Shown here: positions 10,231 through 64,000 of the stretch, in pieces
How the letters are laid out: the number at the start of each line of letters is the position of its first letter
How positions within the stretch are numbered: the first letter of the stretch is position 1
Source of the DNA: Oscillospiraceae bacterium
GTDB taxonomy: Bacteria > Bacillota > Clostridia > Oscillospirales > Oscillospiraceae
Direction: 5' to 3'
Assembly (NCBI GenBank): GCA_910574635.1
Contig: CAJTCG010000008.1
Span: forward strand, 1-64,000
Length of the DNA stretch: 64,000 bases
Made by a program: the position numbers and the translations under genes
The notes under the pieces: model-generated
Database searches by the model: none
Seen by the model: only the letters and a program-made list of their open reading frames with translations
What the model was told of the DNA's origin: nothing

Positions 10231-10279
10231 TGTATGGAACCTCCTGATAGTAAATTTTTATGAAAGGATGGGGGGCCGC

Positions 10280-10825: not shown

Positions 10826-10955
10826 AATGGGAATGCGCGTTCTAAAAAAAGGAACGCCCCTGTGTCCGCGAAGGCACAAGGACGCATAGCAAATACACAT
10901 TTGCCGCCCTCGGCAGGATTTACAGGCAAAGCCCACCTGCTGTCTTTGGAACGCA
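10826..10955 (-). ncRNA. L10 leader RNA (autoregulatory r-protein leader)
   Basis: The minus-strand leader contains the conserved AGACAGCAGGTGG and AATCCTGCCGAGG segments of the Firmicutes L10 leader, which bind the L10-(L7/L12)4 complex. Downstream lies a GC-rich stem plus T-run that can act as attenuator. Boundaries are approximate. Confidence 0.85.
10844..10882 (-). terminator. Attenuator in the L10 leader
   Basis: CCTTGTG-type arm (10881-10875) pairs with the CACAGGGG arm (10864-10857); seven T residues follow on the minus strand (10850-10844), 40 bases before the rplJ start codon. Confidence 0.7.
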
Positions 10956-10961
10956 ACTGTT

Positions 10962-10990
10962 ATTATATGCATGCGGAGGGGAATTGTCAA
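10962..10990 (-). promoter_or_regulatory. Consensus SigA promoter of rplJ-rplL
   Basis: Perfect TTGACA (10990-10985) and perfect TATAAT (10967-10962) with a 17-base spacer on the minus strand. The predicted start near 10955 coincides with the beginning of the L10 leader. Confidence 0.92.
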
Positions 10991-11107
10991 TACCCAAAAC
11001 AAAATTTTCCGTAACGGGTTGTAAAAAAATGTTACCGTTTTGAGATTACAGCGGAGCGGGCGGGACGTATACTGCTGATACAATATTATTATAAAGGAGC
11101 GGGGAGC

Positions 11108-12274
11108 ATGAAAAGACTGCTGGGCGTTTTGGCGCTGGTGCTGCTGCTGGCGGCTTGCGGGCAGGCGAAGATGTCGGAAATGCCGCCGGAGGAGGCGAAA
11201 ACAGAGGCTCCGGCGGAAACGCCGGAGGAGATGGACGAATATGAGACTTTGATTGCGGCTGCGCCGGTTGCCCAGGTAGCAGGGGAGCCTCTTTCACCGG
11301 ATGGACGCTTTGAGGCCAGGGCCGAGGGGGCCAGCGGCGAGTATGTCAGCGGCATACAACCCCCGGAGTATCTGCAAATCATAGACCGGGAGACGGGTGA
11401 GGTGCTGTGGCAGGACCATGGCTGGCTGGAGCAGTCCATCCTCTGGTCCCCGGAGGGGGGCTTTGCCGCCCTGGCCCGGAGCGCCCGGACGTGGTGCTGT
11501 ATCACTATTCTTGAGACGGAGAACTGGACCAGCTGGGACGTTGCCCTGCCGGACGGAAGCTCTATCCCGGAGTATACGTTTTTGCCGTACAACGAGCCAT
11601 GGGGAGAGTGGAAATCCGAGAACAGCCTGGATTTGACCATTGGCTGGGGCGGAGACGCTGGAGAGCAGAGCTTCTATCAGTGCGATGTTTGGGTGAAACC
11701 AGACGGTGTGACCGGGGAGTCCCGGGAGAGGACCCTGGAAACCCTGGGAAGCTGGGATTTTACCCACGACGGACAACCGGAGACGGTGGAGCTGGAGACG
11801 CTCCTGTTTCCCGGTGGAGAAGCGCCGGAATACTTGGAGCTGCGGGTCCTGGACGGAAAGGAGGTTCTCTGGCAGGATACCGCTTCGGCGCATCATGTGG
11901 GTGAAAACAGCTTTTACGCCCTTCAATTGGACGGGCAGGACTACCTGCTCCAGTATGTTCCCAGCATGGGCCAGGGATTCGGTTCCTACCAGTATCGGGT
12001 CTTCTCTCTGGACAGCGCGGGGGAGCCGGTGATTTTCCGGGAAAACCATATGGAGTTCGACATCAACTTCGGCAGTCCGGTCCATGAGAGCTTTGACATT
12101 CCGAAGATCGCCGCCTTCTTGCGGGAGGTCCACGGGTATCTGGACCAGGGCCAGGAGCTGGTGAACACGCTTTGGGGAGAAATCGACTTGGGCAATGTGG
12201 ACTACAGCGATGTCACCGCACTGGAACAAGCGCTGAAACAATTTCAGAAAGAGTACGGGGGACCAGTGGAATAA
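11108..12274 (+). CDS. Lipoprotein of unknown function
   Basis: 388 residues with a signal peptide and lipobox LLLAAC near residues 12-17, an acidic Pro/Glu-rich linker to about residue 45, then a long beta-rich domain with repeated ITGEVLW- and VLWQD-like segments that could form propeller-like or TolB-type blades. No named family recognised. AAAGGAG lies upstream of the ATG. A terminator follows. Single-gene unit, probably displayed on the outer face of the membrane. Confidence 0.7.
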   Translation: MKRLLGVLALVLLLAACGQAKMSEMPPEEAKTEAPAETPEEMDEYETLIAAAPVAQVAGEPLSPDGRFEARAEGASGEYVSGIQPPEYLQIIDRETGEVLWQDHGWLEQSILWSPEGGFAALARSARTWCCITILETENWTSWDVALPDGSSIPEYTFLPYNEPWGEWKSENSLDLTIGWGGDAGEQSFYQCDVWVKPDGVTGESRERTLETLGSWDFTHDGQPETVELETLLFPGGEAPEYLELRVLDGKEVLWQDTASAHHVGENSFYALQLDGQDYLLQYVPSMGQGFGSYQYRVFSLDSAGEPVIFRENHMEFDINFGSPVHESFDIPKIAAFLREVHGYLDQGQELVNTLWGEIDLGNVDYSDVTALEQALKQFQKEYGGPVE

Positions 12275-12280
12275 GAGACT

Positions 12281-12312
12281 GCCGTCCAAGAATTCCTGGA
12301 CGGCATTTCTCC
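12281..12312 (+). terminator. Terminator between convergent lipoprotein and dapA genes
   Basis: GCCGTCCA (12281-12288) pairs with TGGACGGC (12297-12304), followed by ATTTCTCCTTT. Confidence 0.75.
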
Positions 12313-12313
12313 T

Positions 12314-13201
12314 TTACACCACAAGCCCATACTGGGACAACGCGGTTTTTATGCGCTCCAGATTCTCGGGCACAGGCGGGCACATGGGAGAGCGGAGCGC
12401 TCCGACCCGCCAGCCCAGCAGAGAAAGGGCGGTCTTTACCGGGATGGGGTTCACCTCGCAGAACATGGCGTCGCAGAAGTCCTTTAAATGCACCTGCAAT
12501 TCCCCGGCGGCGGCGAAGTCGTTTTTCAGGCACAGCTGAGTCAGCCGGTGCATTTCCGCCGGGAGGATATTCGCCGCCACGGAGATAACCCCCTTGCCCC
12601 CCAGGGCACAGATAGGGACGGTTTCGTCATCGTTGCCGGACCAAATGGTGAAGTCCTTTGGGCAGAGGGACCGGGTCCGCTGGATGTTCCCCAGGTTTCC
12701 CGACGCCTCCTTAACTCCCGCGATGTTGGGGTGCTCCGCCAAGGCGGCGTAAGTCTCCGGGGCAACGCTGACCCCGGTGCGGGAGGGGACGTTATACAGG
12801 ATGATGGGCAGGGAAACCGCGTCCGCGATGGTTCGATAATGCCGGATCAGCCCCGCCTGGGTGGCTTTGTTGTAGTAGGGCGTCACCACCAGCAGGGCGT
12901 CGGCCCCCCGGCGCTCCGCCTCCCGGGAAAGGGTGACGGCGTTTTCCGTAGAGTTGGACCCGGACCCGGCAATGACCGGGACCCGGCTTCCCACATGCCG
13001 GACGCAGAAGGCGACGGCCTCCGACCGCTCCTGGTAGGTCATGGCGCTGGCCTCGCCGGTGGTGCCGCAGACGACCACGGCGTCCGTCCCGTTCTCCAGC
13101 TGGAAGTCCAGCAGCTCCCCCAAGGTCTCAAAGTCCACGCCGCCGTCCTTGAACGGCGTGACAATTGCAACCGCAGAGCCTGTAAAGATAGGATGCTTCA
13201 C
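12314..13201 (-). CDS. dapA: 4-hydroxy-tetrahydrodipicolinate synthase
   Basis: 295 residues, TIM-barrel of the DapA family. It condenses pyruvate with aspartate semialdehyde, the first committed step to diaminopimelate, lysine and dipicolinate. Visible are CGTTGEA near residues 45-51, the YNVPSRTG tyrosine motif near 137 and the Schiff-base lysine in GVKEASGN near 165. The asd gene, which supplies its substrate, lies directly upstream in the same direction with a hairpin between them. Confidence 0.96.
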   Translation of the reverse strand: MKHPIFTGSAVAIVTPFKDGGVDFETLGELLDFQLENGTDAVVVCGTTGEASAMTYQERSEAVAFCVRHVGSRVPVIAGSGSNSTENAVTLSREAERRGADALLVVTPYYNKATQAGLIRHYRTIADAVSLPIILYNVPSRTGVSVAPETYAALAEHPNIAGVKEASGNLGNIQRTRSLCPKDFTIWSGNDDETVPICALGGKGVISVAANILPAEMHRLTQLCLKNDFAAAGELQVHLKDFCDAMFCEVNPIPVKTALSLLGWRVGALRSPMCPPVPENLERIKTALSQYGLVV

Positions 13202-13225
13202 AGATAAAACTCCTTTCTTTGTATA

Positions 13226-13258
13226 GAAAAAGGCTCGCCGCGCGTCTGCGGCAAGCCT
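13226..13258 (-). terminator. Hairpin with T-run between asd and dapA
   Basis: AGGCTTGCCGC/GCGGCGAGCCT stem (13258-13248 with 13241-13231) followed by five T on the minus strand. It can terminate or attenuate transcription from asd into dapA, whose start is 25 bases further. Confidence 0.75.
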
Positions 13259-13278
13259 CTTCCTTGGTGAAAACGGAT

Positions 13279-14370
13279 TTATTTCGCCTCAATATAGCCC
13301 TTTGCGCACAGCAGTTCGGCCAGGAGTACCGCGCCGCCCGCCGCGCCCCGGAGGGTATTGTGGCTCAGACCCACAAACTTATAGTCATATTGGGTATCCT
13401 CCCGCAGACGGCCCAGGGAGACGGCCATGCCGTTTTCCAGGTTCCGGTCCAGCCGGGTCTGGGGGCGGTCCGGCTCTTCGAAGTAGTGGAGGAACTGCTT
13501 GGGGGCGGAGGGAAGGCCCAGCTCCTGGGCGGGGCCCCGGAAGGCGGCCCAGTCGGCCTTAATCTGCTCAATGGAGGGTTTTTTGCCCTCCCGGAACTTT
13601 ACAAATACCGCCGCCATGTGACCGTCCTGGCAGGCCACCCGGAAGCACTGGGCGGTGATGGCGGGGCCCTGAGCCTTGACGATTTTGCCGTCTTCCACCT
13701 TGCCCCAGAGTTTCAGAGGCTCCTGTTCGCTCTTTTCCTCCTCGCCGCCGATGTAGGGGATGCAGTTGTCCACCATCTCCGGCCAGCGCTCAAAGGTTTT
13801 CCCCGCGCCGGAGATGGCCTGATACGTACAAACCAGGGCTTTTTCCACACCGTATTTCAGAAGGGGATGCAGGGCCGGGACATAGCTCTGGAGGGAGCAG
13901 TTGCTTTTCACGACGATGAAACCCCGTTTGGTGCCCAGGCGCCTGCGCTGGGCCTCGATGATCTCAATATGCTCCGCGTTCAGCTCCGGCACCACCATGG
14001 GTACGTCGTCCGTCCAGCGGTGGGCGGAGTTGTTAGAGACAATGGGGCACTCCAGCTTGGCGTATTTCTCCTCCAGAGCCCGGATGTCTTCCTTTTTCAT
14101 GTCCACGGCGCAGAAGCAGAAGTCCACCTGGGACGCCAGTTTCTCCGCGTCGGCTTCAGCGTCCAGAATGACCAGGTTCCTGGCCTCCTCCGGCATGGGG
14201 CAGGTCATGGCCCAGCGGGGGGCCGCGGCCTCCTCGTAGGTTTTTCCGGCGCTTCGGGCGCTGGCGGCCACCGCCGTCAGCTGGAACCAGGGATGGTTTT
14301 CCAAAAGGGTGACAAAGCGCTGGCCCACCATGCCGGTGCAGCCGATCACGCCGGCCTTGTACTGTTTCAT
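13279..14370 (-). CDS. asd: Aspartate-semialdehyde dehydrogenase
   Basis: 363 residues. It reduces aspartyl phosphate to aspartate semialdehyde for lysine, threonine, methionine and diaminopimelate synthesis. The N-terminal nucleotide-binding GCTGMVGQR (residues 10-18), the catalytic cysteine in VVKSNCSLQS near residue 154 and the histidine region near GLSHNTLRG fit the yeast/archaeal-type subfamily. The ATG at 14370 with GGGAGGAG upstream is preferred to a longer frame extension. Confidence 0.94.
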   Translation of the reverse strand: MKQYKAGVIGCTGMVGQRFVTLLENHPWFQLTAVAASARSAGKTYEEAAAPRWAMTCPMPEEARNLVILDAEADAEKLASQVDFCFCAVDMKKEDIRALEEKYAKLECPIVSNNSAHRWTDDVPMVVPELNAEHIEIIEAQRRRLGTKRGFIVVKSNCSLQSYVPALHPLLKYGVEKALVCTYQAISGAGKTFERWPEMVDNCIPYIGGEEEKSEQEPLKLWGKVEDGKIVKAQGPAITAQCFRVACQDGHMAAVFVKFREGKKPSIEQIKADWAAFRGPAQELGLPSAPKQFLHYFEEPDRPQTRLDRNLENGMAVSLGRLREDTQYDYKFVGLSHNTLRGAAGGAVLLAELLCAKGYIEAK

Positions 14371-15963: not shown

Positions 15964-16989
15964 ATGAAGACAAGCGATTTTTACTATGACCTCCCCCAGG
16001 AGCTCATCGCCCAGACGCCCATGGAAAAGCGGGACGGCTCCCGGCTGATGACCCTGGACCGCCGGACGGGGGAGACCGGACACCGGCATTTCTACGACCT
16101 GCCGTCCCTGCTGCGGCCCGGGGACTGCCTGATTATGAACGACTCCCGGGTCCTGCCCGCCCGGCTTCTGGGGCGGAGGCTGCCGGGAGGCGGGGCCTGT
16201 GAGGTGCTGCTGCTGACCGATAAGGGGGAAAATGTCTGGGAGTGCCTGGTCCGGCCTGGGCGGAAGCTGCGCGCCGGGGCCCGGATGACCTTTGGCGACG
16301 GCTCCCTTACCGCCGAGGTGGCGGAGGAGCTGGCGGACGGAAACCGCCTGGTCCGCTTTGCGTATGAGGGAATTTTCCTGGAGGTGCTGGAGCGCCTGGG
16401 GAAGATGCCCCTGCCGCCTTACATCAAAGAAGAGCTCCAGGACCAGGAGCGGTATCAGACGGTTTACTCCAAGGTTCTGGGCAGTGCCGCCGCCCCCACG
16501 GCGGGGCTCCATTTTACGCCGGAGCTGCTGAGGGAACTTGAGTCCAAGGGTGTGAACCTGGGCTATGTGACTCTTCATGTGGGACTGGGAACCTTCCGCC
16601 CGGTGAAGGAGGAGGCCATCGAGGACCACGATATGCACAGCGAGTTCTGCACGGTTCCGCCGGAGACGGCGGAGCTTATCAACCGCACCAAAGCGGCCGG
16701 AGGCCGGGTCATCTGCGTGGGAACCACCTCCTGCCGGACGCTGGAGAGCTGGGCAGGGGAGGACGGGCACATGGAGGCCCGGTCCGGCTGGACGAATATC
16801 TACCTTTATCCCGGCTCCCGGTTCAAGGTGATGGACGGCCTGGTAACGAACTTCCACCTGCCGGAGAGCACCCTGATTATGCTGGTGTCCGCCTTCGCGG
16901 GACGGGAGGCGGTGCTGGCCGCCTACCGGGAGGCGGTGAAGGAGCGATACCGCTTTTTCTCCTTCGGCGATGCCATGTTTATTGGATAA
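15964..16989 (+). CDS. queA: S-adenosylmethionine:tRNA ribosyltransferase-isomerase
   Basis: 341 residues, full length. It transfers and isomerises the ribosyl part of SAM onto preQ1 in tRNA, giving epoxyqueuosine. Characteristic segments are [12 protein letters not shown] at the start, [11 protein letters not shown] near residue 58, [12 protein letters not shown] near 175, THVGLGTF-type [11 protein letters not shown] near 205 and the end [10 protein letters not shown]. The usual downstream partner tgt is not here; a terminator and the prophage follow at once, so the prophage probably separates queA from its old neighbours. Confidence 0.97.
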
Positions 16990-17014
16990 AGGATGGTCCA
17001 GCAGAAAATGACGA

Positions 17015-17053
17015 GCCCGGAACCCCTTGAAATCAGGGGCTCCGGGCTTTTTT
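17015..17053. terminator. Strong terminator between queA and the recombinase
   Basis: GCCCGGA (17015-17021) with TCCGGGC (17041-17047), an inner CCCCT/AGGGG stem and six T residues (17048-17053). It ends rightward queA transcription; the convergent recombinase stop codon overlaps the T-run. The prophage junction lies in or next to this region. Confidence 0.85.
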
Positions 17054-18804
17054 CACGCTTCCGGCTGCTTGTAGATAAATCGGTGCTCTATGCCGTTTTT
17101 GAAGGTGATGGACCGAATTTTGCCGTCCAAGATACAAAAGTTTTGAATTACGGATGTGACAAAATCCCGGACTATTTTCGGGTCCGACGCCTTGATGTAT
17201 GCCTCGTAGTTGATGAACCTCCGCTCGGCCAACTGCTGGCTGATTATGAACAGGCTGGCCTTCGCCATGAAGTCCTCGTCGGACAGGTCGAAGGAGTTTG
17301 CTATGCGGCTATCCAGGGCAGCGATCCTCTCGTCCATGTCTGCCATAGCATCGTTCAGCCTCTTCCGTTCCAGTATGAAGTCTTTCTCCGGCATCCCGTC
17401 CTCGTCGTATAGGTACGCTGCCATCAGGCGCTTCATGGCCCGCTCAGTCCGGCGCCGTTCGGATAGCATCAGGGCCCGTTCTTCGATGGAGCTGTCCCGG
17501 CTCTCTTCGCCATCCGTCATACTGGTCAATATAACGCCGCTCTTTCCGTTTTTAACAAGCTGGTACATCTCTTCTAACCCCGGCCGTTCAATGGCCTCCA
17601 CATCGGCAAATACGTCGCCTCTCAGCAGCTTCTTCTCAAAGGTCTTAATGCTGGTGGTCTTCCCGAAGCTCTTGCGAGCCTTCATGAGGTTGGAAATGTA
17701 GTTCAGTACGAACGGACCAAGGGTTACATCAGAGACGTATTTGTTGTTGCAGGTATTGAACCTCCTATGAGACTCGCAGTTATAGATGGATGGGCGCCAC
17801 CCGTCCGCCCTGGCCTTGTCCAAGGTTGCAGACATATTCCGCCCGCAGCACCCGCAGGTCAGTAGCCCGGCAAAGATATGTGTGTTCTTCCGGGTGTATG
17901 CCCGGTTCTTCCCTGGGCCGTTCCTCTGATTGGCTTCGAGCTGCTTACAGGCCCCGTGCCAGTCCTCCTCGCTCACGATGGCGGGGTGGTGGTCATCGAA
18001 CACGATCCACTCCGACTCGTCCCGGACGGACCAGTTTTTCAGGCCCTTTTTCTCGTTGCGGTAATTGTACCTCATTTTCCCGCAGTAGAAAGGACTCTTC
18101 AGGATGTGAGATACCGTCGTCGGGTTCCACGGGTTGCCTGATCGTTGGAACATTCCCTTCTCGTTCAGCTCCCGCACGACTTTGAGGGTAGAGCGATAGC
18201 TCCGGTACATATCGTATATCATGCGGACCACGGCGGCCTCAGCCTCGTTGATGGAAAATTCACCGGCCTCTTTGTCGTAGTCATATCCGAAGGGGACCTT
18301 GCCGCCGTTCCACTGGCCCTGCTCGGCCCTGGACAACATGACGGCGGTGACGCGCTCGGAGGTCATGTTTCGCTCCAGCTCAGCGAAGACCAGGATGATT
18401 TTCAGCATGGCCTCGCCTATGGCCGTCGAGGTGTCAAATTGCTCGTTCTTGGACACGAAGGTCACGCCGTAGTCCTTGAGCTCCTGGTACATGGAGGCAA
18501 AGTCCAGCAGGTTCCGGCTTATGCGGTCTATCTTCCATACCAGGATGTGGGAAAACTCCCCGGAGCGGACCCTCGCCATCATCCGCTGGTAGGCTGGCCG
18601 GTCGGTGTTCTTGGCGCTGTACCCGGCGTCCTCGAAGACCTCGTAATTCCTGATGCCCAGCACCAGCTCTGCGTACTTCGGCAGCTCATCCCGCTGGAGT
18701 GGAAGGCTGTCCCGGTCTATCTGCCATTTGGTGGACACCCGGATGTAGATTGCCACCTTCTGCTCGTTCACGATGTCGATGATGCGCTTTTTCGTTTTGC
18801 TCAT
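17053..18804 (-). CDS. Large serine recombinase (phage integrase)
   Basis: 583 residues. Residues 16-165 form the resolvase catalytic domain with the nucleophilic serine in YIRVSTKWQ near residue 24 and the IDRISRN arginine motif. The recombinase domain (about 180-290; VPFGYDYDKEAGE) and the zinc ribbon (CGCCGRNM ... CESHRRFNTC near 355-395) follow, then a coiled-coil of about 440-520. This is the layout of phage and transposon large serine integrases. The ATG at 18804 with GGAGGTGG is preferred over the 41-codon extension. It points toward the host junction, as usual for a prophage end gene. Confidence 0.95.
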   Translation of the reverse strand: MSKTKKRIIDIVNEQKVAIYIRVSTKWQIDRDSLPLQRDELPKYAELVLGIRNYEVFEDAGYSAKNTDRPAYQRMMARVRSGEFSHILVWKIDRISRNLLDFASMYQELKDYGVTFVSKNEQFDTSTAIGEAMLKIILVFAELERNMTSERVTAVMLSRAEQGQWNGGKVPFGYDYDKEAGEFSINEAEAAVVRMIYDMYRSYRSTLKVVRELNEKGMFQRSGNPWNPTTVSHILKSPFYCGKMRYNYRNEKKGLKNWSVRDESEWIVFDDHHPAIVSEEDWHGACKQLEANQRNGPGKNRAYTRKNTHIFAGLLTCGCCGRNMSATLDKARADGWRPSIYNCESHRRFNTCNNKYVSDVTLGPFVLNYISNLMKARKSFGKTTSIKTFEKKLLRGDVFADVEAIERPGLEEMYQLVKNGKSGVILTSMTDGEESRDSSIEERALMLSERRRTERAMKRLMAAYLYDEDGMPEKDFILERKRLNDAMADMDERIAALDSRIANSFDLSDEDFMAKASLFIISQQLAERRFINYEAYIKASDPKIVRDFVTSVIQNFCILDGKIRSITFKNGIEHRFIYKQPEA

Positions 18805-18826
18805 ATCCACCTCCACGGCTGCGGAA

Positions 18827-18940
18827 TGTCCACGGGACACCATGCGGGACCGTAGCGTGACATCCCTATACCATTTCCGCAACTTTTCCGAAGAAAATCT
18901 CTCGCAACCAAACCATAACCAAACCAAACCATAACCAAAA
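18827..18940. repeat. Recombinase upstream repeat region (palindrome, GACCGT-GACATCC motif, AACCAAACC repeats)
   Basis: TGTCCACGGGACA (18827-18839) is a palindrome. GGACCGT..GC..GACATCC follows (18847-18865) and then a run of AACCAAACC/AACCATAACC units (18905-18936). Similar motifs in the same order stand at 54404-54470 inside the baseplate gene cluster. The role may be binding of the recombinase, a directionality factor or a regulator. Confidence 0.5.
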
Positions 18941-38039: not shown

Positions 38040-39437
38040 ATGGCTACACGGATACTCAGGCCACAGCCTGGGCCGCAGGAGCGGTTCCTTGCATCTTCCG
38101 CAGATATAGTAGTCTACGGTGGAGCAGCCGGCGGAGGAAAGACCTACGGCTTGCTCCTGTCCGCCCTTCGGTATAAGAATGTCAGGGGATATAACTGCAC
38201 AGTGTTCAGAAAGACCTACAAACAGGTATTCTCTCCAGGCGGCCTATGGGACGAGACGCTTGATATGTACTACGGGATACGGGGCGCACAGTCCAGAATA
38301 TCCAACGGAGAGTGGCGCTTTACCGATAAACGTGGGTATATCACATCAAGGGTGCTGTTCAAACACATTGGCAGCGACGATGAGCTGTACGATTATCAGG
38401 GAAGCCAGATTTGCGGATTGTGCTTCGACGAGCTCACCCACTTCACTGAACACCAGTTTTTCTATATGCTCTCCCGAAACCGCTCCGTCTGCGGTGTGAA
38501 GCCCTTTGTCCGGGCCACCTGCAACCCAGATGCCGACAGTTGGGTCGCTACGTTCATTGAATGGTGGATTGACCAGAAGACCGGATACCCTATCCCGGAA
38601 CGCAGCGGCAAGATTAGATGGATGATCCGCCGCAACAATATCATCCACTGGGCAGATAGTAAATCGGAGCTGGTTGAGCAGTTCAATCTCGTAACGGAGG
38701 AGGAGCTGCATGAACCGAAGAGTGTCACGTTCATTGCAAGCTCCGTCTACGACAATAAGATACTGCTGAAGCAGGACCCCGGATACCTCGCCAACCTGAA
38801 GGCCCTGGCCCTCGTGGAGCAGGAACGGCTCCTCCATGGCAACTGGAAAATCAAGCCCGCCGCCGGCCTATTCTTCAAGCGGACGCAGGTGGGGGAGATG
38901 CTCCAGAACGTCCCCCTGGATGTGGTCAAGTGGGTACGGGCCTGGGACCTCGCTGCTACGTCGGAAGACGAGGGAGGCAACCCCGCCTACACCGCCGGCG
39001 TCCTCATGGGCAAGCGCAGCAACGGCCGGTACGTCATCGCCAACGTGGTCAATGTACGGCTCTCCGCCTCGGAGGTACGCCAGACCGTAAAGATGAACGC
39101 TGCCATGGACATCGCCCGGTACAGGCGGGTCCGGGTCAGGCTCCCGCAGGACCCCGGCCAAGCCGGTAAGGATCAGGCTCAGAGCTACATCAAGTTCATG
39201 GCCGGGTACGATGTCTGCGCCATCGCTGAGAGCGGTAGCAAGGAAGCACGAGCTGAGCCCGTTGCCGCCCAGTGGCAAGCGGGCAATTTCGATGTTGTCA
39301 TCGGTGACTGGAACGAAGAGTATTTTGCCCAGCTTGAGAGCTTCCCCGCCAGCCGGTACAAGGACATGGTGGATGCCACCAGCTCGGCCTTTGCGGAGAT
39401 TGAAAACGTATTCGATATTGGAGGGCTTATCACATGA
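38040..39437 (+). CDS. Terminase large subunit
   Basis: 465 residues. Walker [10 protein letters not shown] near residues 27-35 and Walker [10 protein letters not shown] near 126-132 form the packaging ATPase; the RNase H-like nuclease starts at [20 protein letters not shown] near 300 with further acidic residues near the end ([11 protein letters not shown]). ATG 38040 is preferred to one two codons earlier for ribosome-site spacing. Confidence 0.96.
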
Positions 39438-41683
39438 GTAATGAAATCCGTCAGGATGGCTATGTCAACCTGATGAACAAGTGGGGGACCAGCCAGGACG
39501 CCTCGGAGGGCTACCGCTTCCAGCGGGAGCTCGTCACGCCCGATATGGAGTTGACCACCCTCTACACCGATAACGGTCTGTTCACGAAAATCATCGACGC
39601 TCCGGCGGAGGAGGCTCTGAAGCAGGGATTCGACCTGGGGCTGAACAACCCGGACATCGAGAAGTTCGTCACCCGGTCCCTGGATGATCTGCGGTGGGAG
39701 GAACACGCTGCCACCGCCATGAAGTGGTCACGGCTCTACGGCGGCTCCATCATCGTCATGCTGATTGACGATGGCCGGGGTCTGGAGGAACCGCTCAACT
39801 GGAAGAATATCCGCAGCATCGACGAGCTGCACGTCTTCGAGCGTCCCGTGGTCTGGCCCGACTACAACAGCCTGTATGCTGGGGACATCAGAAACTACCG
39901 GGGGCGGCGCAGGGGCGGCGGCTTCATGCAGCCCCAGTTCTACGATGTCTCCAGTATCTACGGTACGTTCCGGGTCCATGCCAGCCGGTGTCTGGTCTTC
40001 CGCAACGGCGTGGTCCCTGAGAGTGTGGGCAACGAGAATTACCGGTACTGGGGCACCCCGGAGTACATCCGCCTCCGTCGGGCCATCCAGGATACCATCA
40101 CGGCGCACAGCAACGGCCCGAAGCTGCTGGAGCGCAGCGTCCAGGCTGTCTACAAGATGAAGGGTCTGGCCCAGCTCCTCGCCTCCGAGCTCGGCGAGAA
40201 CCAAGCCCTGAAGCGTCTGGAGCTCATTGACCTCGCCCGTGGCATGATGAATACCATCGCCATTGACGCTGACGGAGAGGACTATGGCTTCCAGACGTTC
40301 CAGTTCTCCGGGGTCAAGGATGTCATCGACGCCACCTGCAATATGCTGTCTGCCCTGACGAACATCCCGCAGACCATCCTCTTCGGTCGGGCCCCCGCCG
40401 GGGAAAACTCCACCGGAGAGAGTGACATGGAAAACTGGTACAGCTTCGTCGGTCGCCTCCAGCGGCTCACGGTTCGCCCGGTTCTGCTGAACCTGCTGGA
40501 TGTCATCTTCATAGCGGGCAGGGCCAGCGGGGAAATCGAGGAGGAGCCGGACTACGAGCTGAAGTTCAACCCGCTCTGGACCATGAGCGACACGGAGAAG
40601 GCCACGGTGGACAAGACCAAGGCAGATACCTCCTACGTCAAAGCGCAGACCGCCCAGATTTATGTAGGGTTGCAATCTCTCGACCCGTCCGAGGTCCGTG
40701 GGGCCCTGGCAGACAGCGGAGAGTTCCAGGTGGAAGACATCCTGGACGGCATCCCGCCGGAAGAGCTGCTCCTGGAGCCCCAGGATGACACCACAATGGA
40801 TTTGTCGGAGGACCAACCACCTACACCGGAATATGGTCTTCCGCCTGTTCCTGAGCCTCCCAAGGCTAACCAGGACGCTTCCGATGGCCCGCCCAAAACC
40901 ACCGGAAAGGGCGTGGGGGTCCTGGTAGTCCGTGACGGGAAAATCCTCACCGGCCTCCGCCGGACTGAAGGTACGTTCTGCGGTCCCGGCGGCCACATCG
41001 AGGCCGGAGAGACCCCGGAGCAAGCTGCACTCAGGGAAACGCAGGAAGAGTTCGGCATCACCCCCACGGAGCTCATCCACATCGGAAGCACCAGCGGGGC
41101 GGCAAAGCCGTACTTGCCCTCGGAGATTTACCTCTGCACCGAGTACGACGGAGCTCCGAAGGCAGATGGTAACGAGATGGAGTTTGCCCAGTTCATGGAA
41201 CCGGCGAAGGTCCTGTCTCTGATTGACGCCGGCGTTGCCTTCCCTCCATTTGCGGAGTCTGTTAAACTTCTGTTACACGGCTTGACACCCGGAAGCCCCT
41301 CCGATACAATTAACCCTATCCCCACCAACACCGATGGAGGCCCTGGTAGCGGAAACTTCGGGCACGAAGGCCGCAAGGGACAGGTCGGCGGAAGTGGAGG
41401 CTCTCTTGGGCAGAAGGAGAAAGACAAGATAGTCAAGCGCCTCGTTGGGCAAAGTACCCATGATGGGGTTGTGATCCGTTCTGTATCCGCTCACGCATTT
41501 GACCGTATCGGTGGCAGGAAGCTATCGGTTGGTCGTATCGACAGCATGAGAACGCAGGGCACGATAAGCCCCGGACACCAGCCAGACACCAGATGTTATG
41601 ACGTTCCTGGAAGCCGAATGGTCATCAACACGAAGACCGGCAACGTCATCACCGTTATGTGGAGAAGAGGAGGAAAGAAATGA
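39434..41683 (+). CDS. Portal protein fused to Nudix domain and C-terminal toxin-like domain
   Basis: 749 residues in three parts. Residues 1-470 are a DUF1073-type portal ([55 protein letters not shown]). Residues about 490-615 are a Nudix hydrolase with a complete Nudix box from 518 ([19 protein letters not shown], then EEFG). After a glycine-rich [19 protein letters not shown] linker the last 90 residues ([31 protein letters not shown]) look like a BECR-type (barnase/EndoU/colicin/RelE-like) nuclease domain of phage proteins. The small acidic gene downstream may be its immunity protein. Confidence 0.85.
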
Positions 41684-58008: not shown

Positions 58009-58864
58009 CTACTTCGCCAGCCTGAAAGCTGACCTCGTGGAGCAGTTCAAGGGCCAGCCGAACATCGAGGCCGTCATGGAGGTCATCGCTGAACAACTCC
58101 AGGACGTAGCGGACTTCTATGAGGACCTGCGGACGCAGCGTTCCATCAGCACCGCCGTCGGCTCTCAGCTTGACGGCGTGGGGGACATCGTGGTCCTCAG
58201 CCGGGCGGAGGCCGGGGAGCTCTCCAGCTTCGTCAACCCCGGCGAGCCCATCAACGATGAAACCTACCGGAAGTACCTGTTCTACAAGGTCCTGAAGAAC
58301 ACGAACACCTGCACCTACCCAGACCTCATCCGGGCCTTCCGTATGTTCTGGGAGAAGCCCCTGTACTACCACGAGGACCCGGAGTACCCGGCGGTCATGT
58401 TCCTGGACGCTGGCATCCTCAGCCCGGAAGACCATGCGGAGAACCTGCTGAGCGCCCCCATCATCAAGGCCGCCGGCGTGGGCATCCACATCACGGCCAC
58501 CACGGAGTCTCCGCCCATGGAGTCGGAGCTGCACGTCACCCCGGTCATGGGCCGGGGAATGGCTATCACGAAGCTCCCGGAGCTGGAGCCGGAGCTCCCG
58601 GCCGCCGTCATCTCCGTCGTCCCGGTCATCGGGCGGGGCCTGAGTATCACGAAGCTCCCGGTCATCGAACCGGACCTGGGGATCGCCGCCGTGGTGGGCC
58701 ACGCTTCCGCCGCCATGGTCGGCACCATCATGGAGACCCGGCTCCCCACGCTGAAAGACTTTGATACCGAAATCCAGGCGGCCACGGTGGGCCGCTTTTC
58801 TGCTGCTTCGCACGGCACTATCATGGAGACAAGACTACCAGAATTGAAGGAGGAATTTGCATGA
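58001..58864 (+). CDS. Baseplate gpI-like protein (DUF2612-type) with C-terminal repeats
   Basis: 287 residues from GTG. Residues 1-120 are the DUF2612-like wedge part (VDYFASLKADLVEQFKGQPN; LDGVGDIVVLSRAEAGE). From about residue 178 there are two kinds of repeats: PVMGRGMAITKLPELEPEL and PVIGRGLSITKLPVIEPDL, then twice GTIMETRLP(T/E)LK. The repeats probably form an extended arm linking to the fibre. Confidence 0.78.
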   Translation: MVDYFASLKADLVEQFKGQPNIEAVMEVIAEQLQDVADFYEDLRTQRSISTAVGSQLDGVGDIVVLSRAEAGELSSFVNPGEPINDETYRKYLFYKVLKNTNTCTYPDLIRAFRMFWEKPLYYHEDPEYPAVMFLDAGILSPEDHAENLLSAPIIKAAGVGIHITATTESPPMESELHVTPVMGRGMAITKLPELEPELPAAVISVVPVIGRGLSITKLPVIEPDLGIAAVVGHASAAMVGTIMETRLPTLKDFDTEIQAATVGRFSAASHGTIMETRLPELKEEFA

Positions 58865-59631
58865 ACCCCATGGTTATTGACCCGATGAACCCCGTTGAGA
58901 ACGAGAACTACGGCTGCACCACCACCAAGCGGGGTCGGGCCCTGATTGCCAAAATCCTGGCCGAGAAGATGCCCCTCACCCTCACCCGGACCATGGTAGG
59001 GTCCGGTATCTGCCCGGATGGGCTGTTTCCCGGCGAGCTCCAGGACCTTGTTGAGCCGGTGGCCGCCGCCACCTCCAACGAGCCCATGTACGACGGCGAT
59101 ACCGTCCACATGACGGTGGAGTACCGGTCCGACCTGAACGGCGGCCTGGACCACGGTTTCTGGATCAGGGAGTTCGGTGTGTTTGCCCGTGACCTGGAGG
59201 GGGAAGAGGTACTGCTGTACTACGGCACCCTGGGGGATTACCCTCAGTGGGTCAGCGCCTACTCCAAGAACGGCATCGACACCCGCCGGTTCCCCATCAG
59301 CATCACCGTCGGCGAGGGGGCCACGGTCATCATCGACTACTCCCCGGAGGCGTTCATGACGGCGGAGGACGTGAAGGAATACTGCGTCGTGGTCATGCTG
59401 CCCCAGTTCCTCGTGGAGGCCCAGAAGCTCATCGACCTCCACAACGGGGACATGGAGGCCCACCCGTTCCTCCAGAACCTCAATGCTGCCATGGACTCCC
59501 GGCTGTCCCTGCTGGAGCTGATGTATAACACCGATGTGTCCGGCAACCCGTTCACCGTCACCTTCGACAGCCTGACCGGGCTGGTGGTTACTGGTGTCTG
59601 GAACACCAACCAGAAAAGGCTTGAGTTCTGA
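58861..59631 (+). CDS. Tail fibre-like protein
   Basis: 256 residues. The N-terminal 170 residues (YGCTTTKRGRALIAKILAEKM; GFWIREFGVFARD; VEYRSDLN) are typical of proteins that attach fibres to the baseplate, followed by a short coiled region and a small C-terminal part. AAGGAGG precedes the ATG, which overlaps the previous stop. Confidence 0.82.
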   Translation: MNPMVIDPMNPVENENYGCTTTKRGRALIAKILAEKMPLTLTRTMVGSGICPDGLFPGELQDLVEPVAAATSNEPMYDGDTVHMTVEYRSDLNGGLDHGFWIREFGVFARDLEGEEVLLYYGTLGDYPQWVSAYSKNGIDTRRFPISITVGEGATVIIDYSPEAFMTAEDVKEYCVVVMLPQFLVEAQKLIDLHNGDMEAHPFLQNLNAAMDSRLSLLELMYNTDVSGNPFTVTFDSLTGLVVTGVWNTNQKRLEF

Positions 59632-59888
59632 TGGAGGAAGTAACATTTTCCCGGCCACCGAATGAGCTGTCCTGCATCATCGGGAACCTGTTCACATCGG
59701 TGGAGCCACCCTGCGATTTGTGTGACCATGGACGCACGACCGATCTTGTCATTACCGGCATCACCCACAGTCAAAATTATGGGAGGCTGACCATCAAGAC
59801 CGATTGCTGCATCTTTTACGGCAGGCCCGAAGATTTGGCCGCCGTCATGACCGGGCGCTGCCCGAAAGGAGGATGCGGAAATGGCTGA
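59631..59888 (+). CDS. Small cysteine-rich protein next to the DGR
   Basis: 85 residues with CDLCDHG near 28-34, DCCIFYG near 60 and CPKGGC near the end. Possibly zinc-binding. It overlaps the tail-fibre gene by one base and the DGR accessory gene by eight bases, so it may belong to the DGR unit. No family recognised. Confidence 0.55.
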   Translation: MEEVTFSRPPNELSCIIGNLFTSVEPPCDLCDHGRTTDLVITGITHSQNYGRLTIKTDCCIFYGRPEDLAAVMTGRCPKGGCGNG

Positions 59889-60486
59889 AAAGGAATACCT
59901 GCTTGGCAACAGGGCGAGGGAGCTCCTGCGATACACCAATCAGGCGACAAGGATCGTGTCCGATGATGTCAGCCAGCGTGACGTTCGGGCGATTATCAAG
60001 CGTATCGCCGAGCTCGATGACATCCGGGAGGTCAGGTCGGTGTGCTCCATGGTCACACACCAATTAGACGAAAAGAGCAACGAGGGCTTCACCAAGAGCA
60101 AGTTCCGGCTCTACGGCGAGGATATGCGGCAGATTGCCAAGAACATCGTTCGGGATGTCCATTCTGCGAACAACAAGCATTTCCAGACCGAGTATGACGC
60201 ACGGCTCAAGAAGATAGACGACGTTCTGGACGGCTGCACCCTGCTCCTGGAGTACATCCAGATTTGTGTCGAGGAGCACATCATCAGCGTGAAGAAGTCC
60301 GGCGTCTGGACGAAGAAGGTCACTGACGTGAAGTATATGGCCGCCTCCTGGAGAAAGAACGACGGAGGCAGGGCCCGGAAGCTGAGGGAGGAGGCTCAGG
60401 CCCAGGCAGACAAGCGGCAGGTCGAGGTCGTGAAGGCTGCGATCCGCCAGTACAACGCCGAGAGGCAGACCCGCCCCACACAGTAG
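59881..60486 (+). CDS. DGR accessory protein candidate (helical, Avd-like role)
   Basis: 201 residues, nearly all helix: RARELLRYTNQATRIVSDD, KFRLYGEDMRQIAKNIVRDV, DDVLDGCTLLLEYIQICVEE and a basic helix at the C-terminus (ARKLREEAQAQADKRQVEV). It stands where the avd gene stands in the BPP-1 DGR, just before the template repeat and the reverse transcriptase. Avd is a smaller four-helix protein (about 130 residues), so this is either a longer relative or a separate accessory type. Inference: binds RT and template RNA. Confidence 0.62.
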   Translation: MAEKEYLLGNRARELLRYTNQATRIVSDDVSQRDVRAIIKRIAELDDIREVRSVCSMVTHQLDEKSNEGFTKSKFRLYGEDMRQIAKNIVRDVHSANNKHFQTEYDARLKKIDDVLDGCTLLLEYIQICVEEHIISVKKSGVWTKKVTDVKYMAASWRKNDGGRARKLREEAQAQADKRQVEVVKAAIRQYNAERQTRPTQ

Positions 60487-60902
60487 GGATACCCGGCGGT
60501 GGCGCCCGCCTTGTATCAAGGGTATGACTCGTTTTCGGCCGCCAACTGGTGGCTCCGCTCCCCGAACACCAACAACTCCAACAACGCTTGGAACGTGAAC
60601 TCCAATGGCAACTCCAACAACACGAACAACTGCTCGAACTCCTATGGCATCCGCCCCGCTCTGATGGAATGTGAGACGTGTAACCCCCGCAAGGGGGCGA
60701 AAGCAGTACGCCATCATCAAAGGGAGTCATATCCTGTCGCCGCTCTGCGCCACGGGGCGACGACGAACACATCACGCCGAGGCCAGCCACCCCCGCCGGG
60801 GGTGCCGTTGGCTGCCTGGGGGAAGGAGGGCCGGCGTTAGGCATGAGGGCCGGTCGGGAGCTTCCCCTACACCCCGGCCGGCGGAAGCAAAGGAATGGTT
60901 GA
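60487..60902 (+). ncRNA. DGR template RNA region (TR and downstream spacer)
   Basis: A 416-base segment with no credible gene; an open frame through it exists only because the TR copies the target reading frame. It contains the TR (60534-60660) and a downstream spacer with hairpins: CCCCC-GCAA-GGGGG (60684-60697), GTCGCC/GGCGAC (around 60737-60762) and CACCCCCGCCGGGGGTG (about 60788-60804). In known DGRs the RNA spacer next to TR folds to prime cDNA synthesis. The transcript ends are unknown. Confidence 0.8.
60534..60660 (+). repeat. DGR template repeat (TR)
   Basis: 127 bases matching 62605-62731 without gaps. Thirty-four of its bases are A, mostly in AAC codons. All 21 mismatches to VR are at TR adenines, none at C, G or T. 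The last 21 bases (60640-60660) are identical in VR and GC-rich, as expected for the initiation-of-mutagenic-homology end. Similarity stops sharply at both ends. Confidence 0.97.
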
Positions 60903-62093
60903 ATGACCTATCAGGAAATGTGCGCTTTTGACGTGTTGTATGCCGCCTACCTGGAGGCCAGAAGCGGGAAGCGCAAAAAGGTCAGCACCGCCCAGTATGA
61001 GGCGAACGCCCTGGCCTGTACCGAGAAGCTGTCCCGTATACTTGCGTCGAAGACCTATATCCCAGGAAAATTCGAGACTTTCTACGTCTACGAGCCGAAG
61101 AAGCGGCTCGTCCAGGCCCCGGCGTTCGTGGACAAGGTTGTGCTCCATGCCGTGACCGATAACATCCTGTACGAAGCCGTGACGAAGAGCTTTATCCGTG
61201 ACAACTACGCCAGCCAAAAGGGAAAAGGAACCCATGACGGTCTGATGCGGCTGAAGCAGTTCATGGTGGACTACTACCGGCAGTACGGCACAGCCGAAGG
61301 CTGGGTGCTGAAATGCGATGTCCACCACTTCTTCGCCTCCATCGACCATGACAAGCTGAAGGTGAAGCTGAAGGCCCTGCTTGACCGCCGGGGAGTAGAC
61401 CCGCAGATTTATGAGCTGCTGTGCATCTACATCGACACCACGGCGGGACTGCCCCTGGGCTACCAGACCAGCCAGCTCCTCGCCCTGCTGTTCCTGGATG
61501 AGTTTGACCACATCGTCAAGGAGAAGTACGGCGTCAAGAAGTATGGCCGGTACATGGATGACTTCCTCGCCATCCACCCGTCGAAAGAGTTCCTGAAGAA
61601 CCTGTTGGCAGACTTCCGGGTGTTTATGGGCAGCTACGGTCTGGAGCTGAACGAGAAGACCGGCATCTTCCCTCTGAGGAACGGCATCGACTTCCTTGGA
61701 TTCCATAGCTACCTGACCGAGACCGGCGGTGTTGTCCAGAAGCTCCGCAAGGACGGTATCGACAGGATCAAGAAGAACATCAAGATATGGCGGGTCGAGT
61801 ATCCCGCCGGGAACATCACCAAAGAGAAGATACTCGAAAAGTTCGGTTCATGGGACGCTCATGCGGCCCACGGTGACACTCACGCCTTACGGACGAAGTA
61901 TGCCAAGCAGGTCGAGGAAATCATCGGCGAGAAGGTTCCCGTCCACCGGAAAATCAACTCGACGAGGGAGGTTCGGGCGAAGCGGCGAGTAAAGCAGATG
62001 CAGAACATCTACAAGAAGCAGCACAGGGCGCAGGAGCAATCCGGCGCCTTTTCGCCTGTCCCGAGGCCGGCCGACATACCGCCGTGGCAATAA
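60903..62093 (+). CDS. DGR reverse transcriptase
   Basis: 396 residues. RT motifs: KCDVHHFFASIDH near 138-149 with the first catalytic Asp, LPLGYQTSQ near 184-191 where LGxxxSQ replaces the QGxxxSP of other RTs (a DGR-RT hallmark), and the active-site YMDD at 217-220 followed by GIDFLGFHS. A basic C-terminal extension (about 290-375) may bind RNA. It copies TR RNA into cDNA with errors at adenine. The stop is 20 bases before the target gene start. Confidence 0.96.
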   Translation: MTYQEMCAFDVLYAAYLEARSGKRKKVSTAQYEANALACTEKLSRILASKTYIPGKFETFYVYEPKKRLVQAPAFVDKVVLHAVTDNILYEAVTKSFIRDNYASQKGKGTHDGLMRLKQFMVDYYRQYGTAEGWVLKCDVHHFFASIDHDKLKVKLKALLDRRGVDPQIYELLCIYIDTTAGLPLGYQTSQLLALLFLDEFDHIVKEKYGVKKYGRYMDDFLAIHPSKEFLKNLLADFRVFMGSYGLELNEKTGIFPLRNGIDFLGFHSYLTETGGVVQKLRKDGIDRIKKNIKIWRVEYPAGNITKEKILEKFGSWDAHAAHGDTHALRTKYAKQVEEIIGEKVPVHRKINSTREVRAKRRVKQMQNIYKKQHRAQEQSGAFSPVPRPADIPPWQ

Positions 62094-62113
62094 ATTTTGA
62101 AGGAGGAAAAGAC

Positions 62114-63973
62114 ATGGCATCAGTTGCCCTCAGCAGCAAAGCCGTTGGCAGTATCGTCAAGATTAAAGTCAATGGCACCCTGCGGGACTTCATCGTTGTC
62201 CAGCAGGGGAAGCCGTCGTCCATCTACGACGAGTCCTGCAATGGCACATGGTTGTTGATGAAAGACCTGTACGAAAGCCGCCAGTGGCATAGCTCCAACG
62301 TCAATGACTATGCCAACAGCACCATCCACAAGTGGCTCAACAACGAGTTCCTCAACCTGATCGACGCAAATATCCGGGCCCAGATCAGGCAAGCGAAAAT
62401 CCCGTACCGTCCCGGCAGCGGCACCAGCATGAGCGTCAACAGCGGGGCGAACGGCCTGAGTGCGAAGATTTTCCTGTTGTCCAACATCGAGGTCGGCGGC
62501 CAGACCGATTGGAGCTATATGCCCCATGACGGCGCAAGGCTGGCCTACTTCGAGTACGGCACCGGCACCTCGGCCAACAACAAACGCCTCGCCTATCTCA
62601 ACGGTTCGGCCGCCCTCTGGTGGCTCCGCTCCCCGGGCGCCCACTACTCCTGCGACGCTTGGCGCGTGGACTCCAATGGCCACTCCCACTACGCGAGCTA
62701 CTGCTCGGGCTCCTATGGCATCCGCCCCGCTTTGATACTTCCCTCTTCTCTCTTGGTCTCTGATGACGGCTCCGTATCGACGAACACGGCCCCGACCACG
62801 CCCAGCAGCATCTCCGTCCCCAGCAGCATCCAGGGGGGAAGCACCATCACCGTGTCCTGGGGGGCCAGCACCGACAAGGAGAGCAACCTGGAGGGGTATA
62901 TCCTGGAGCGCAGTACCGATGGCGGAAAGTCGTGGTCGCAGATTTACCAGGGCAACAGCCGGAGCACGACCAACACCGTGCCGTTTGGCACGGGAAGCGT
63001 GATGTACCGGGTGAAAGCCTATGACAGCGATGGGCTGGCGTCCGGGTACAAGACCAGCGGCCAAGTGACGGTAGTAAACAACACCGCCCCGACCGCCCCG
63101 AATGGCATCACGGTCCCGAATACCGTCCTGGGCGGTGCGACGCTCACCATTACATGGGGAGCGGCCACCGACCAGGATGGTAATTTGTCTGGGTACAGCC
63201 TGGAGCGGCAGGTGGACGGCGGCGAATGGGAGGTGGTCTACACCGGCAACACCCTGAGTTACACCGATACCATCACGAAGGGCTGGGCGACCGTGGCCTA
63301 CCGGGTCCGGGCCTACGACAGCAACAACGCATACAGCAGCTACACCGTGTCGCCGGAACGGACCGTGAACAACAACACCGCCCCGGCCATCATCTGCGGT
63401 TCCCCCAGCGGGAGCGACCTGGGGGAGAAGGACGCCGGGTTCATGGTGTCCTACTCCGTCTCCGATGTGGACGGCGATGAGATCACTGTGACCGAGGCCA
63501 TCGACGGCGTGACAAAGCGGACGTTCACGGCCACGCTGGACGGGAGCAACAGCTTCAACGTCACCGGCGAGTATTTCATGAAGCTGCTGAACGGCAATCA
63601 CACTCTGACCATCACGGCCAGCGACGGTAAGGCCAGCACCGTCCACACCCTGGTCTTCGCCAAGAAAGTCACCGGGGCCTCTATCACACTGGAGACGCCC
63701 ATGGCGGCCGACGACCAGATCAGCATTTGCGTTCTGTCCGTCATCGGCCTCATCCCGGCGGACGCCGAGTACAAGGTCGAGGTCACGAACAACGCCAATG
63801 ACGAGACCCCGGTGTGGGAGGACTGCACCACCGCCGTGAAGACCGGCGCCAACTATGTCTTCGAGAACAAGACCGCCGCCAATGGCTTCGCCTTCAACTT
63901 CCGGCTGACCGCCGAGCGTGGTCCCAGCGGGGAGGGCGGCTACATCACGTCTGTGCAAGGAGGGTTCCAGTAA
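62114..63973 (+). CDS. DGR target protein: DUF6273-type scaffold with VR, then fibronectin-III-like repeats
   Basis: 619 residues; ATG 62114 with AGGAGG seven bases upstream. Residues 1-225 resemble a DUF6273 domain (WHSSNVNDYANSTIHKWLN; ALWWLRSP; SYGIRPALILPS), probably a C-type-lectin-like scaffold. VR codes for residues 167-206; 16 of its codons differ from the TR. After it come fibronectin-III-like repeats (two similar about 85-residue units from 235 to 415 with ISVPSSIQGGSTITVSWGA and ITVPNTVLGGATLTITWGA) and two beta-rich C-terminal domains. Presumably a displayed receptor-binding protein. Confidence 0.9.
   Translation: MASVALSSKAVGSIVKIKVNGTLRDFIVVQQGKPSSIYDESCNGTWLLMKDLYESRQWHSSNVNDYANSTIHKWLNNEFLNLIDANIRAQIRQAKIPYRPGSGTSMSVNSGANGLSAKIFLLSNIEVGGQTDWSYMPHDGARLAYFEYGTGTSANNKRLAYLNGSAALWWLRSPGAHYSCDAWRVDSNGHSHYASYCSGSYGIRPALILPSSLLVSDDGSVSTNTAPTTPSSISVPSSIQGGSTITVSWGASTDKESNLEGYILERSTDGGKSWSQIYQGNSRSTTNTVPFGTGSVMYRVKAYDSDGLASGYKTSGQVTVVNNTAPTAPNGITVPNTVLGGATLTITWGAATDQDGNLSGYSLERQVDGGEWEVVYTGNTLSYTDTITKGWATVAYRVRAYDSNNAYSSYTVSPERTVNNNTAPAIICGSPSGSDLGEKDAGFMVSYSVSDVDGDEITVTEAIDGVTKRTFTATLDGSNSFNVTGEYFMKLLNGNHTLTITASDGKASTVHTLVFAKKVTGASITLETPMAADDQISICVLSVIGLIPADAEYKVEVTNNANDETPVWEDCTTAVKTGANYVFENKTAANGFAFNFRLTAERGPSGEGGYITSVQGGFQ
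62605..62731 (+). repeat. DGR variable repeat (VR)
   Basis: Matches the TR at 60534-60660 over 127 bases with 21 substitutions, all where TR has A. Changes include AAC to CTC, GGC, CAC, TAC, TGC, GAC, CGC and AGC. One AAT codon is unchanged. The substituted sites are concentrated in the surface-loop part of the scaffold. VR lies internal to its gene. Confidence 0.97.
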
Positions 63974-64000
63974 TGGGGCTGAATGTTATCAGGAAGGACT
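63973..64000 (+). CDS. Start of next tail gene (cut by window edge)
   Basis: ATG at 63973 overlaps the target stop codon (TAATG) and codes MGLNVIRKD before the window ends. Likely translated by coupling with the DGR target; function cannot be told. Confidence 0.6.

What the first reader, a model, noticed from the sequence alone, without database searches (positions are those of the whole stretch)
60534..62731. Complete diversity-generating retroelement in a prophage tail module
Seen: a 127-bp TR and a 127-bp VR align without gaps; all 21 differences fall on TR adenines (34 A in total) and no other base differs. The RT between them has YMDD and the DGR-specific LGxxxSQ. Known: these are the defining marks of adenine-directed mutagenic retrohoming. 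Inference: the phage diversifies a receptor-binding protein. At least 16 codons have been changed, so it has been active in this lineage.
Basis: partly seen in the sequence, partly recalled or inferred. Interest (0 to 1): 0.95.

Follow-up and report, generated by a model that had tools for sequence, protein, structure and literature searches.

The report
Prophage DGR with structured guide RNA
A prophage, likely of a gut bacterium, carries a cassette that is predicted to rewrite one patch of a likely surface-binding phage protein: among 117 closely related proteins that patch occurs in 97 versions while the rest hardly changes, and the cassette holds a base-paired RNA segment, conserved in its relatives, that likely guides the copying.

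Summary
TR (60534-60660) and VR (62605-62731) align without gaps over 127 bp, and all 21 differences fall on the 34 TR adenines. The RT's best solved match is the BPP-1 DGR RT; an Avd-like gene lies upstream. The cassette is collinear with that of Faecalibacterium phage FP_Brigit. Its target has the make-up of the published 'tentaclins' (DUF6273 plus Ig/FN3 domains). It is a new member of a known kind.

The element has been active: a near-identical phage contig has 0/127 TR differences but 23/127 in VR, 22 on TR adenines, and in 117 related proteins variability sits on TR-adenine codons.

Three things I did not find in the papers seen. The TR-RT spacer is a covarying RNA without an Rfam match; searched alone in 394 genomes it hit 8, and all 7 outside this genome lie between a TR and an RT. 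The hairpin expected 3' of VR is not there. The 13 codons after VR have the gene's highest synonymous conservation. Receptor and virion location remain unknown.

The parts
59881..60486 (+). Avd-like accessory gene, 201 aa, predicted helical bundle
60534..60660 (+). Template repeat (TR), 127 bp, 34 adenines, all at target codon positions 1 (18) or 2 (16)
   Evidence: identical (0/127) in L012
60661..60864 (+). Structured spacer RNA between TR and RT; inferred RT/Avd-binding and cDNA-start region
   Evidence: 24 of 46 predicted pairs have compensatory changes in 11 sequences, 0 of 500 shuffles as high; covariance models R1/R2; no Rfam match. Alone the window's spacer folds no better than shuffles (z -0.29)
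60903..62093 (+). DGR reverse transcriptase, 396 aa
   Evidence: PHROG 1423 E 4.9e-122; best PDB match BPP-1 bRT 8ub7_A E 2.3e-27, next group II maturase 3.4e-8; Pfam RVT_1 1.6e-18
62114..63973 (+). Target gene, 619 aa: DUF6273 (residues 43-211) followed by Ig/FN3-like domains; tentaclin-like
   Evidence: Pfam DUF6273 E 7.1e-36; PHROG 10993 'Hoc-like head decoration' E 7.4e-210, best stretch residues 316-619; FN3/titin matches for residues 226-403
62605..62731 (+). Variable repeat (VR), residues 165-206, inside the target gene
62732..62770 (+). Coding stretch directly 3' of VR with the gene's highest synonymous-site conservation; no hairpin
   Evidence: identical codons in 455 of 595 same-residue pairs (0.765) vs 0.510 (residues 1-160) and 0.530 (225-618) in 11 loci; hairpin tests
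17053..18927 (-). Serine integrase at the left side of the prophage (context)
   Evidence: Pfam Resolvase, Recombinase, Zn_ribbon_recom; 58% identical to the FP_Brigit integrase
58861..59631 (+). Tail fibre protein gene upstream of the cassette (context)
   Evidence: PHROG 7037 tail fiber protein E 3.2e-45

Best explanation
This is a complete diversity-generating retroelement of a Brigitvirus-like prophage, in the order avd - TR - spacer RNA - RT - target, whose RT likely copies the TR transcript with errors opposite adenines and whose cDNA is predicted to replace the VR inside the neighbouring tentaclin-like gene. Shown here: the A-only TR/VR differences; an invariant TR with a changed VR in a near-identical phage; about 2.2 bits of variability on the 19 TR-adenine codons against 0.03 on the other 23 VR codons in 117 proteins; and a conserved, covarying RNA at the TR-RT junction. 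Inferred: by analogy with BPP-1 the spacer RNA recruits RT and Avd and holds the start of cDNA synthesis; the cDNA enters VR through the shared GC-rich 3' end; because the hairpin used by BPP-1 is missing, the conserved 39 nt 3' of VR may take over part of target recognition; the varied patch would alter what the C-lectin-like tip binds.
For: TR/VR. L012: TR 0/127, VR 23/127 with 22 on TR adenines, 4 differences in the 1,944 nt between TR and VR. Population: 117 proteins incl. the window's own, 97 distinct VRs, 5 of 2,223 cells unreachable by A>N (all at residue 201). RT and Avd. RNA. 26 TR/VR pairs: 402 of 412 differences on TR A. Collinear FP_Brigit cassette.
Against: No expression, cDNA or read-level data were available. 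Metagenome assemblies could mix VRs. The protein list is the best 120 of 7,986 hits (3 of other lengths dropped), so it says nothing of the rest. The DUF6273 domain was not modelled confidently (pLDDT below 50 over residues 86-223), so its C-lectin fold rests on the tentaclin paper. Avd is below two curated cut-offs. The lone spacer is not unusually stable.
Confidence: 0.93

Rival explanations
1. A once-active, now decayed DGR whose TR/VR differences are a fossil.
For: The window alone shows only past change; nothing here measures present activity.
Against: RT, Avd-like and target frames are intact; TR is unchanged while VR differs between 98%-identical phages; 97 distinct VRs in 117 proteins with constrained surroundings.
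Confidence: 0.04
2. VR diversity comes mostly from recombination among phages or from assembly mixing, not from retrohoming.
For: Against L012 the target gene also diverges 3' of VR (78 differences in 62750-63999, bins), which suggests exchange of that gene part.
Against: Recombination does not confine differences to TR adenines nor keep 2,218 of 2,223 residues within what A>N in TR codons can reach.
Confidence: 0.03
3. The conserved spacer RNA serves transcription or translation (leader, terminator) rather than reverse transcription.
For: It sits directly upstream of the RT start; searches do not show what it binds.
Against: It starts at the TR end in each of 7 genome hits and 5 held-out other-order loci, and BPP-1's spacer at this place recruits bRT-Avd and primes cDNA (passages of PMC12875486).
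Confidence: 0.12
4. The synonymous conservation 3' of VR reflects a recombination junction or local codon constraint, not target recognition by the DGR.
For: L012 and the window diverge 3' of VR, as expected if breakpoints lie near it; the residues (LPSxLLVSDDG) are conserved too; in the nd4/nd12-like loci the motif is only partly kept.
Against: Ser TCT at residues 211 and 216 in 11 of 11 loci, although TCT is 12 of 253 Ser codons elsewhere in four of the genes.
Confidence: 0.45
5. The diversified protein is a capsid-decorating adhesin that holds the virion in mucus, not a host-receptor-binding tail protein.
For: PHROG and RefSeq names 'Hoc-like head decoration'; proposed in PMC5883640 (passages).
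Against: Gene lies next to tail fibre genes; the tentaclin authors leave bacterial, epithelial or immune-cell binding open (PMC10743442).
Confidence: 0.45

Closest known systems
Faecalibacterium phage FP_Brigit DGR (NC_047909)
   Same: Collinear Avd - TR - RT - Hoc-like target over the 4.1-kb query, 67.1% DNA identity; RT 65%; TR/VR with 14 of 15 differences on A
   Different: Own TR/VR sequence; other host (F. prausnitzii)
Tentaclin DGRs of phages nd4 and nd12 (PMC10743442)
   Same: DUF6273 N-terminal domain carrying VR, then Ig domains; avd - TR - RT - target order; spacer RNA found by model R1 in both (E 9.3e-5 and 1.3e-9); rare A>C at the second A of AAC
   Different: nd4/nd12 have a second target gene; the window's TR finds only its one VR in the whole genome; RT 41-45% identical
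Bordetella phage BPP-1 DGR
   Same: A-specific TR/VR, Avd, RT (E 2.3e-27), TR next to the RT
   Different: VR at the gene's 3' end with an 8-bp hairpin; order target-avd-TR-RT; no match of R1/R2
Canonical-order DGRs L017-L023 of IMG/VR
   Same: RT 36-43% identical; R2 finds the spacer RNA in 5 of 7
   Different: VR upstream of TR, 4-68 nt before the stop codon, with an 8-10 bp stem in 7 of 7

Membership tests
Diversity-generating retroelement | TR and VR differ at TR adenines only | tested here: met
   21 of 21
Diversity-generating retroelement | RT of the DGR type | tested here: met
   best PDB match BPP-1 bRT; PHROG 1423; no RT tree was made
Diversity-generating retroelement | Avd or analogue | tested here: inconclusive
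Diversity-generating retroelement | VR varies between relatives while TR is constant | tested here: met
   population
Diversity-generating retroelement | IMH/IMH* at the 3' ends of VR/TR | tested here: inconclusive
   shared CCGCCCCGCT, then TR CTGATG vs VR TTGATA; no function tested
Diversity-generating retroelement | Hairpin/cruciform 3' of VR (found in a subset of DGRs per one passage of PMC3521204; so not defining) | tested here: not met
   no perfect stem of 6 or more nor one-mismatch stem of 7 or more in the 60 nt 3' of the window's VR
Diversity-generating retroelement | cDNA synthesis and retrohoming | not testable with these tools
   needs experiment
Tentaclin (PMC10743442) | N-terminal C-lectin domain carrying VR | tested here: inconclusive
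   DUF6273 met; fold not modelled
Tentaclin (PMC10743442) | Ig-like domains after it | tested here: met
   FN3/titin sequence matches; strand-rich model with pLDDT mostly above 80 for residues 231-410
Tentaclin (PMC10743442) | seven-residue consensus of the C-terminal Ig domain | not tested
   consensus letters not in the text seen
Brigitvirus | Shared genome organisation with FP_Brigit | tested here: met
   integrase, portal, tape measure, baseplate, RT and target match in order; no species or genus metric computed

The most novel reading that the evidence does not exclude
Tentaclin-type DGRs find their internal VR without a DNA hairpin: a conserved coding-sequence element just 3' of VR, read together with a distinct, covarying spacer RNA that defines a new RNA family spanning several DGR lineages, replaces the BPP-1 hairpin/cruciform.
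Probability: 0.4. Interest if true: 0.7.

Novelty: new member of a known kind. Interest (0 to 1): 0.5.

Why it matters
It gives a natural repertoire of one DGR target (97 VRs on a nearly constant scaffold), an RNA model that picked out DGRs from sequence alone (7 of 7 hits outside the own genome), and a lineage that diversifies an internal VR without the hairpin that Guo et al. propose as a conserved requirement (passages of PMC3240598). That makes 'how does the cDNA find its target?' directly testable in a second system.

Tried and rejected
AF2 of the whole target failed for the DUF6273 domain (pLDDT below 50), so no surface mapping of VR was done. The spacer alone is not more stable than shuffles; the case for RNA rests on covariation. 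R1 gave two off-site matches (L034:2836-2955, E 0.052; L038:7785-7837 minus strand, E 0.77), comparable with the weak on-site ones (L023 0.045, L021 0.19, L020 0.29); these three became E 1e-3 or better only with R2. R1/R2 found nothing at the DGR site of BPP-1, FP_Taranis, Pioen, FP_Mushu, L027, L017, L019, nor in the two other DGR regions of this genome. Alignments A4 and A7 were fitted to the model and lean towards its structure; A1 (MAFFT) is the fair one. No attachment-site repeat: the longest exact match between 16401-17060 and the sequence right of 66 kb is 13 bp. The target-protein scan of viral contigs found only the contig of L012, as did the VR/TR pattern scan. Chance was rejected as explanation of TR/VR. 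Hairpin counts are not independent: L018, L020, L021 and L022 share one hairpin sequence, and L033/L037 the same imperfect stem. In the same genome the C20 DGR has an internal VR (665 nt before a stop) with an 8-bp hairpin, so an internal VR does not by itself exclude a hairpin; the VR of C15 was not tested. In one search the coding starts of several loci were cut or extended wrongly by my script (frames right, N-terminal parts less reliable). Loci without a counted TR/VR pair: L014, L015, L016, L024 (contig ends before the place of VR), L027 and L067 (none found), L038 (pair with a gap, left out); the C20 and C15 pairs (12 of 13 and 14 of 14 on A, one gap each) are not in the 412 either.

The rarity of A>C at the second A of AAC is not claimed as new: PMC10743442 reports it for nd4/nd12-like phages. 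My counts: 3 of 1,159 unambiguous cells in 97 VRs (199 Ser cells left out); DNA pairs 2 of 104 changed second As (both in L064) against 9 of 35 in L017-L023, Fisher p 6e-5. The synonymous test (Ser AGC 31, TCC 0) is weak, as few TCC are expected; selection is not excluded.
Full report
OBSERVATION. All TR adenines fall on target codon position 1 (18, of which 15 changed) or 2 (16, of which 6 changed), none on position 3. TR lies between genes; VR covers residues 165-206 of a 619-aa protein (62114-63973) and ends 1,239 nt before the stop codon. The whole-genome DNA search with TR finds TR and this one VR only.

PROPHAGE. A serine integrase (17053-18927, minus strand), terminase and portal, tape measure, baseplate and tail fibre genes match FP_Brigit in order; a SpoIID gene lies outside the integrase. 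The right end and attachment sites were not found. Near relatives of the target are named 'uncultured Oscillibacter sp.' in public sources (P0023, P0044), hence 'likely gut bacterium'.

ACTIVITY. Contig L012 (IMG/VR) is 98.3% identical over 8 kb with an identical RT protein. TR differs at 0 of 127 positions, VR at 23 of 127, 22 of them TR adenines and the other the first base; only 4 differences lie in the 1,944 nt between TR and VR. The protein search gave 7,986 hits, the best 120 listed; I used the 117 of 619 aa, the window's own included, and dropped 3 of other lengths. The 19 TR-adenine codons average 2.20 bits, the other 23 VR codons 0.03, the rest of the protein 0.08; 5 of 2,223 residues at TR-adenine codons cannot arise by A>N, all at residue 201; 97 VRs are distinct. 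Across 26 TR/VR pairs 402 of 412 differences are on TR adenines: 301 of 309 in 19 pairs of the avd-TR-RT-target order, 101 of 103 in 7 with VR upstream. The pairs were found with a filter for A-directed mismatches (at least 70%, 75%), so the share is somewhat favoured by selection; some pairs are close relatives.

SPACER RNA. In 11 spacers aligned by MAFFT, 24 of 46 predicted pairs show changes on both sides that keep the pair; 94.5% of cells pair; 0 of 500 shuffles reach the covariation score of 0.350 (shuffled mean 0.176), and slid controls give at most 0.076. Rfam has no match. Model R1 found loci it was not built from: L044 1.4e-21, nd12 1.3e-9, L038 3.4e-6, nd4 9.3e-5, besides L012 and L024, which are near-copies of the window. 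Searched alone in 394 genomes of the order it hit 8; the 7 outside this genome all begin within 4 nt of the end of an A-specific TR and run up to, or up to 19 nt into, an RT match, with an Avd match upstream and VR downstream. Model R2 then scored the spacers of 5 of 7 canonical-order DGRs it had not seen (E 1.1e-5 to 4.5e-3), each starting within 8 nt of the TR end. It did not match BPP-1, FP_Taranis, Pioen, FP_Mushu, L017, L019, L027 or the two other DGR regions of this genome. On its own the window's spacer folds no better than shuffles. In BPP-1 the spacer recruits bRT-Avd and primes cDNA (passages of PMC12875486; the structure paper itself is not held), so I infer the same role.

TARGET SITE. 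PMC3240598 (passages) shows that a hairpin 3' of VR is needed for efficient BPP-1 homing and proposes it as a conserved requirement; PMC3521204 (one passage) speaks of a subset of DGRs. My scan recovers the BPP-1 hairpin. In the 60 nt 3' of VR, perfect stems of 6 or more occur in 1 of 19 loci of this type and 3 of 7 canonical-order ones; stems of 7 or more with at most one mismatch in 3 of 19 (shuffles 0.03-0.18 per locus) and 7 of 7 (Fisher p 0.00018, relatedness not corrected: four of the seven share one hairpin). Instead, the 13 codons after VR (62732-62770) have the highest synonymous conservation of the gene in 11 loci: 0.765, against 0.510 and 0.530 elsewhere; 0 of 362 other 13-codon windows reach it. 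Ser is TCT at residues 211 and 216 in 11 of 11, though TCT is 12 of 253 Ser codons outside this stretch in four genes. In the nd4/nd12-like loci the motif is only partly kept. A DGR recognition element, a recombination junction, or protein and codon constraint could explain it.

WHAT IS KNOWN. DGRs in Faecalibacterium prophages, with FP_Brigit's Hoc-like target, are in PMC5883640 (passages) and PMC11792537 (passages and one section); tentaclins with N-terminal VR are in PMC10743442 (parts 1-3 of 6 and passages). Searches for a conserved DGR spacer RNA, for hairpin-free or internal VRs and for tentaclins in the held library listed no paper that, from title, abstract start or passages seen, describes the spacer RNA family or the 3' element; most subscription papers are not held, so this is weak evidence of novelty.

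VERDICT. A real DGR with strong evidence of past and recent activity, a new member of a known kind. Its interest lies in the repertoire, the RNA model and the hairpin-free internal target.

Noticed in passing
G000 contig C20 (L040, RT 9459-10700; target 6434-8665) and contig C15 (L041 minus strand, RT 8449-9621; target 11004-13814): Two further DGRs in the same genome, RTs 28-30% identical to the window's, targets hitting phrog_37900 with DUF6273, TR/VR differences 12 of 13 and 14 of 14 on A with one gap each.
   Followed up: partly
L040 8163-9146 (+) and L041 10076-10600 (-): A protein matching phrog_30516 (unknown function) lies between target and RT in both, where Avd sits in other DGRs; a candidate Avd analogue.
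   Followed up: no
window 39434-41683: Portal protein with a C-terminal NUDIX domain (Pfam Phage_portal_3 8e-77, NUDIX 8.7e-15).
   Followed up: no
window 62750-63999 against L012: The target gene 3' of VR differs at 78 positions between two phages that are otherwise nearly identical around the cassette (bins), suggesting exchange of the Ig part with a breakpoint near VR.
   Followed up: partly
AAC codons of VR: Second A rarely becomes C (3 of 1,159 unambiguous cells), unlike the 26.8% G misincorporation at NAC given for BPP-1 bRT (passages of PMC12875486); Tyr, Ser and Gly are the commonest new residues.
   Followed up: partly
window 10840-10967 (-): Ribosomal protein L10 leader (Rfam RF00557, 49.9 bits), chromosomal side of the prophage.
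   Followed up: no
G000:C4:155881-156720 (L006): RT-like stretch in a 1,054-aa open frame, 24% identical to the query (E 8.6e-6).
   Followed up: no
L024 (CANPFP010000066.1): A MAG contig with 99%-identical RT ends inside the target gene, before the place of VR, as if the hypervariable stretch had broken the assembly.
   Followed up: no
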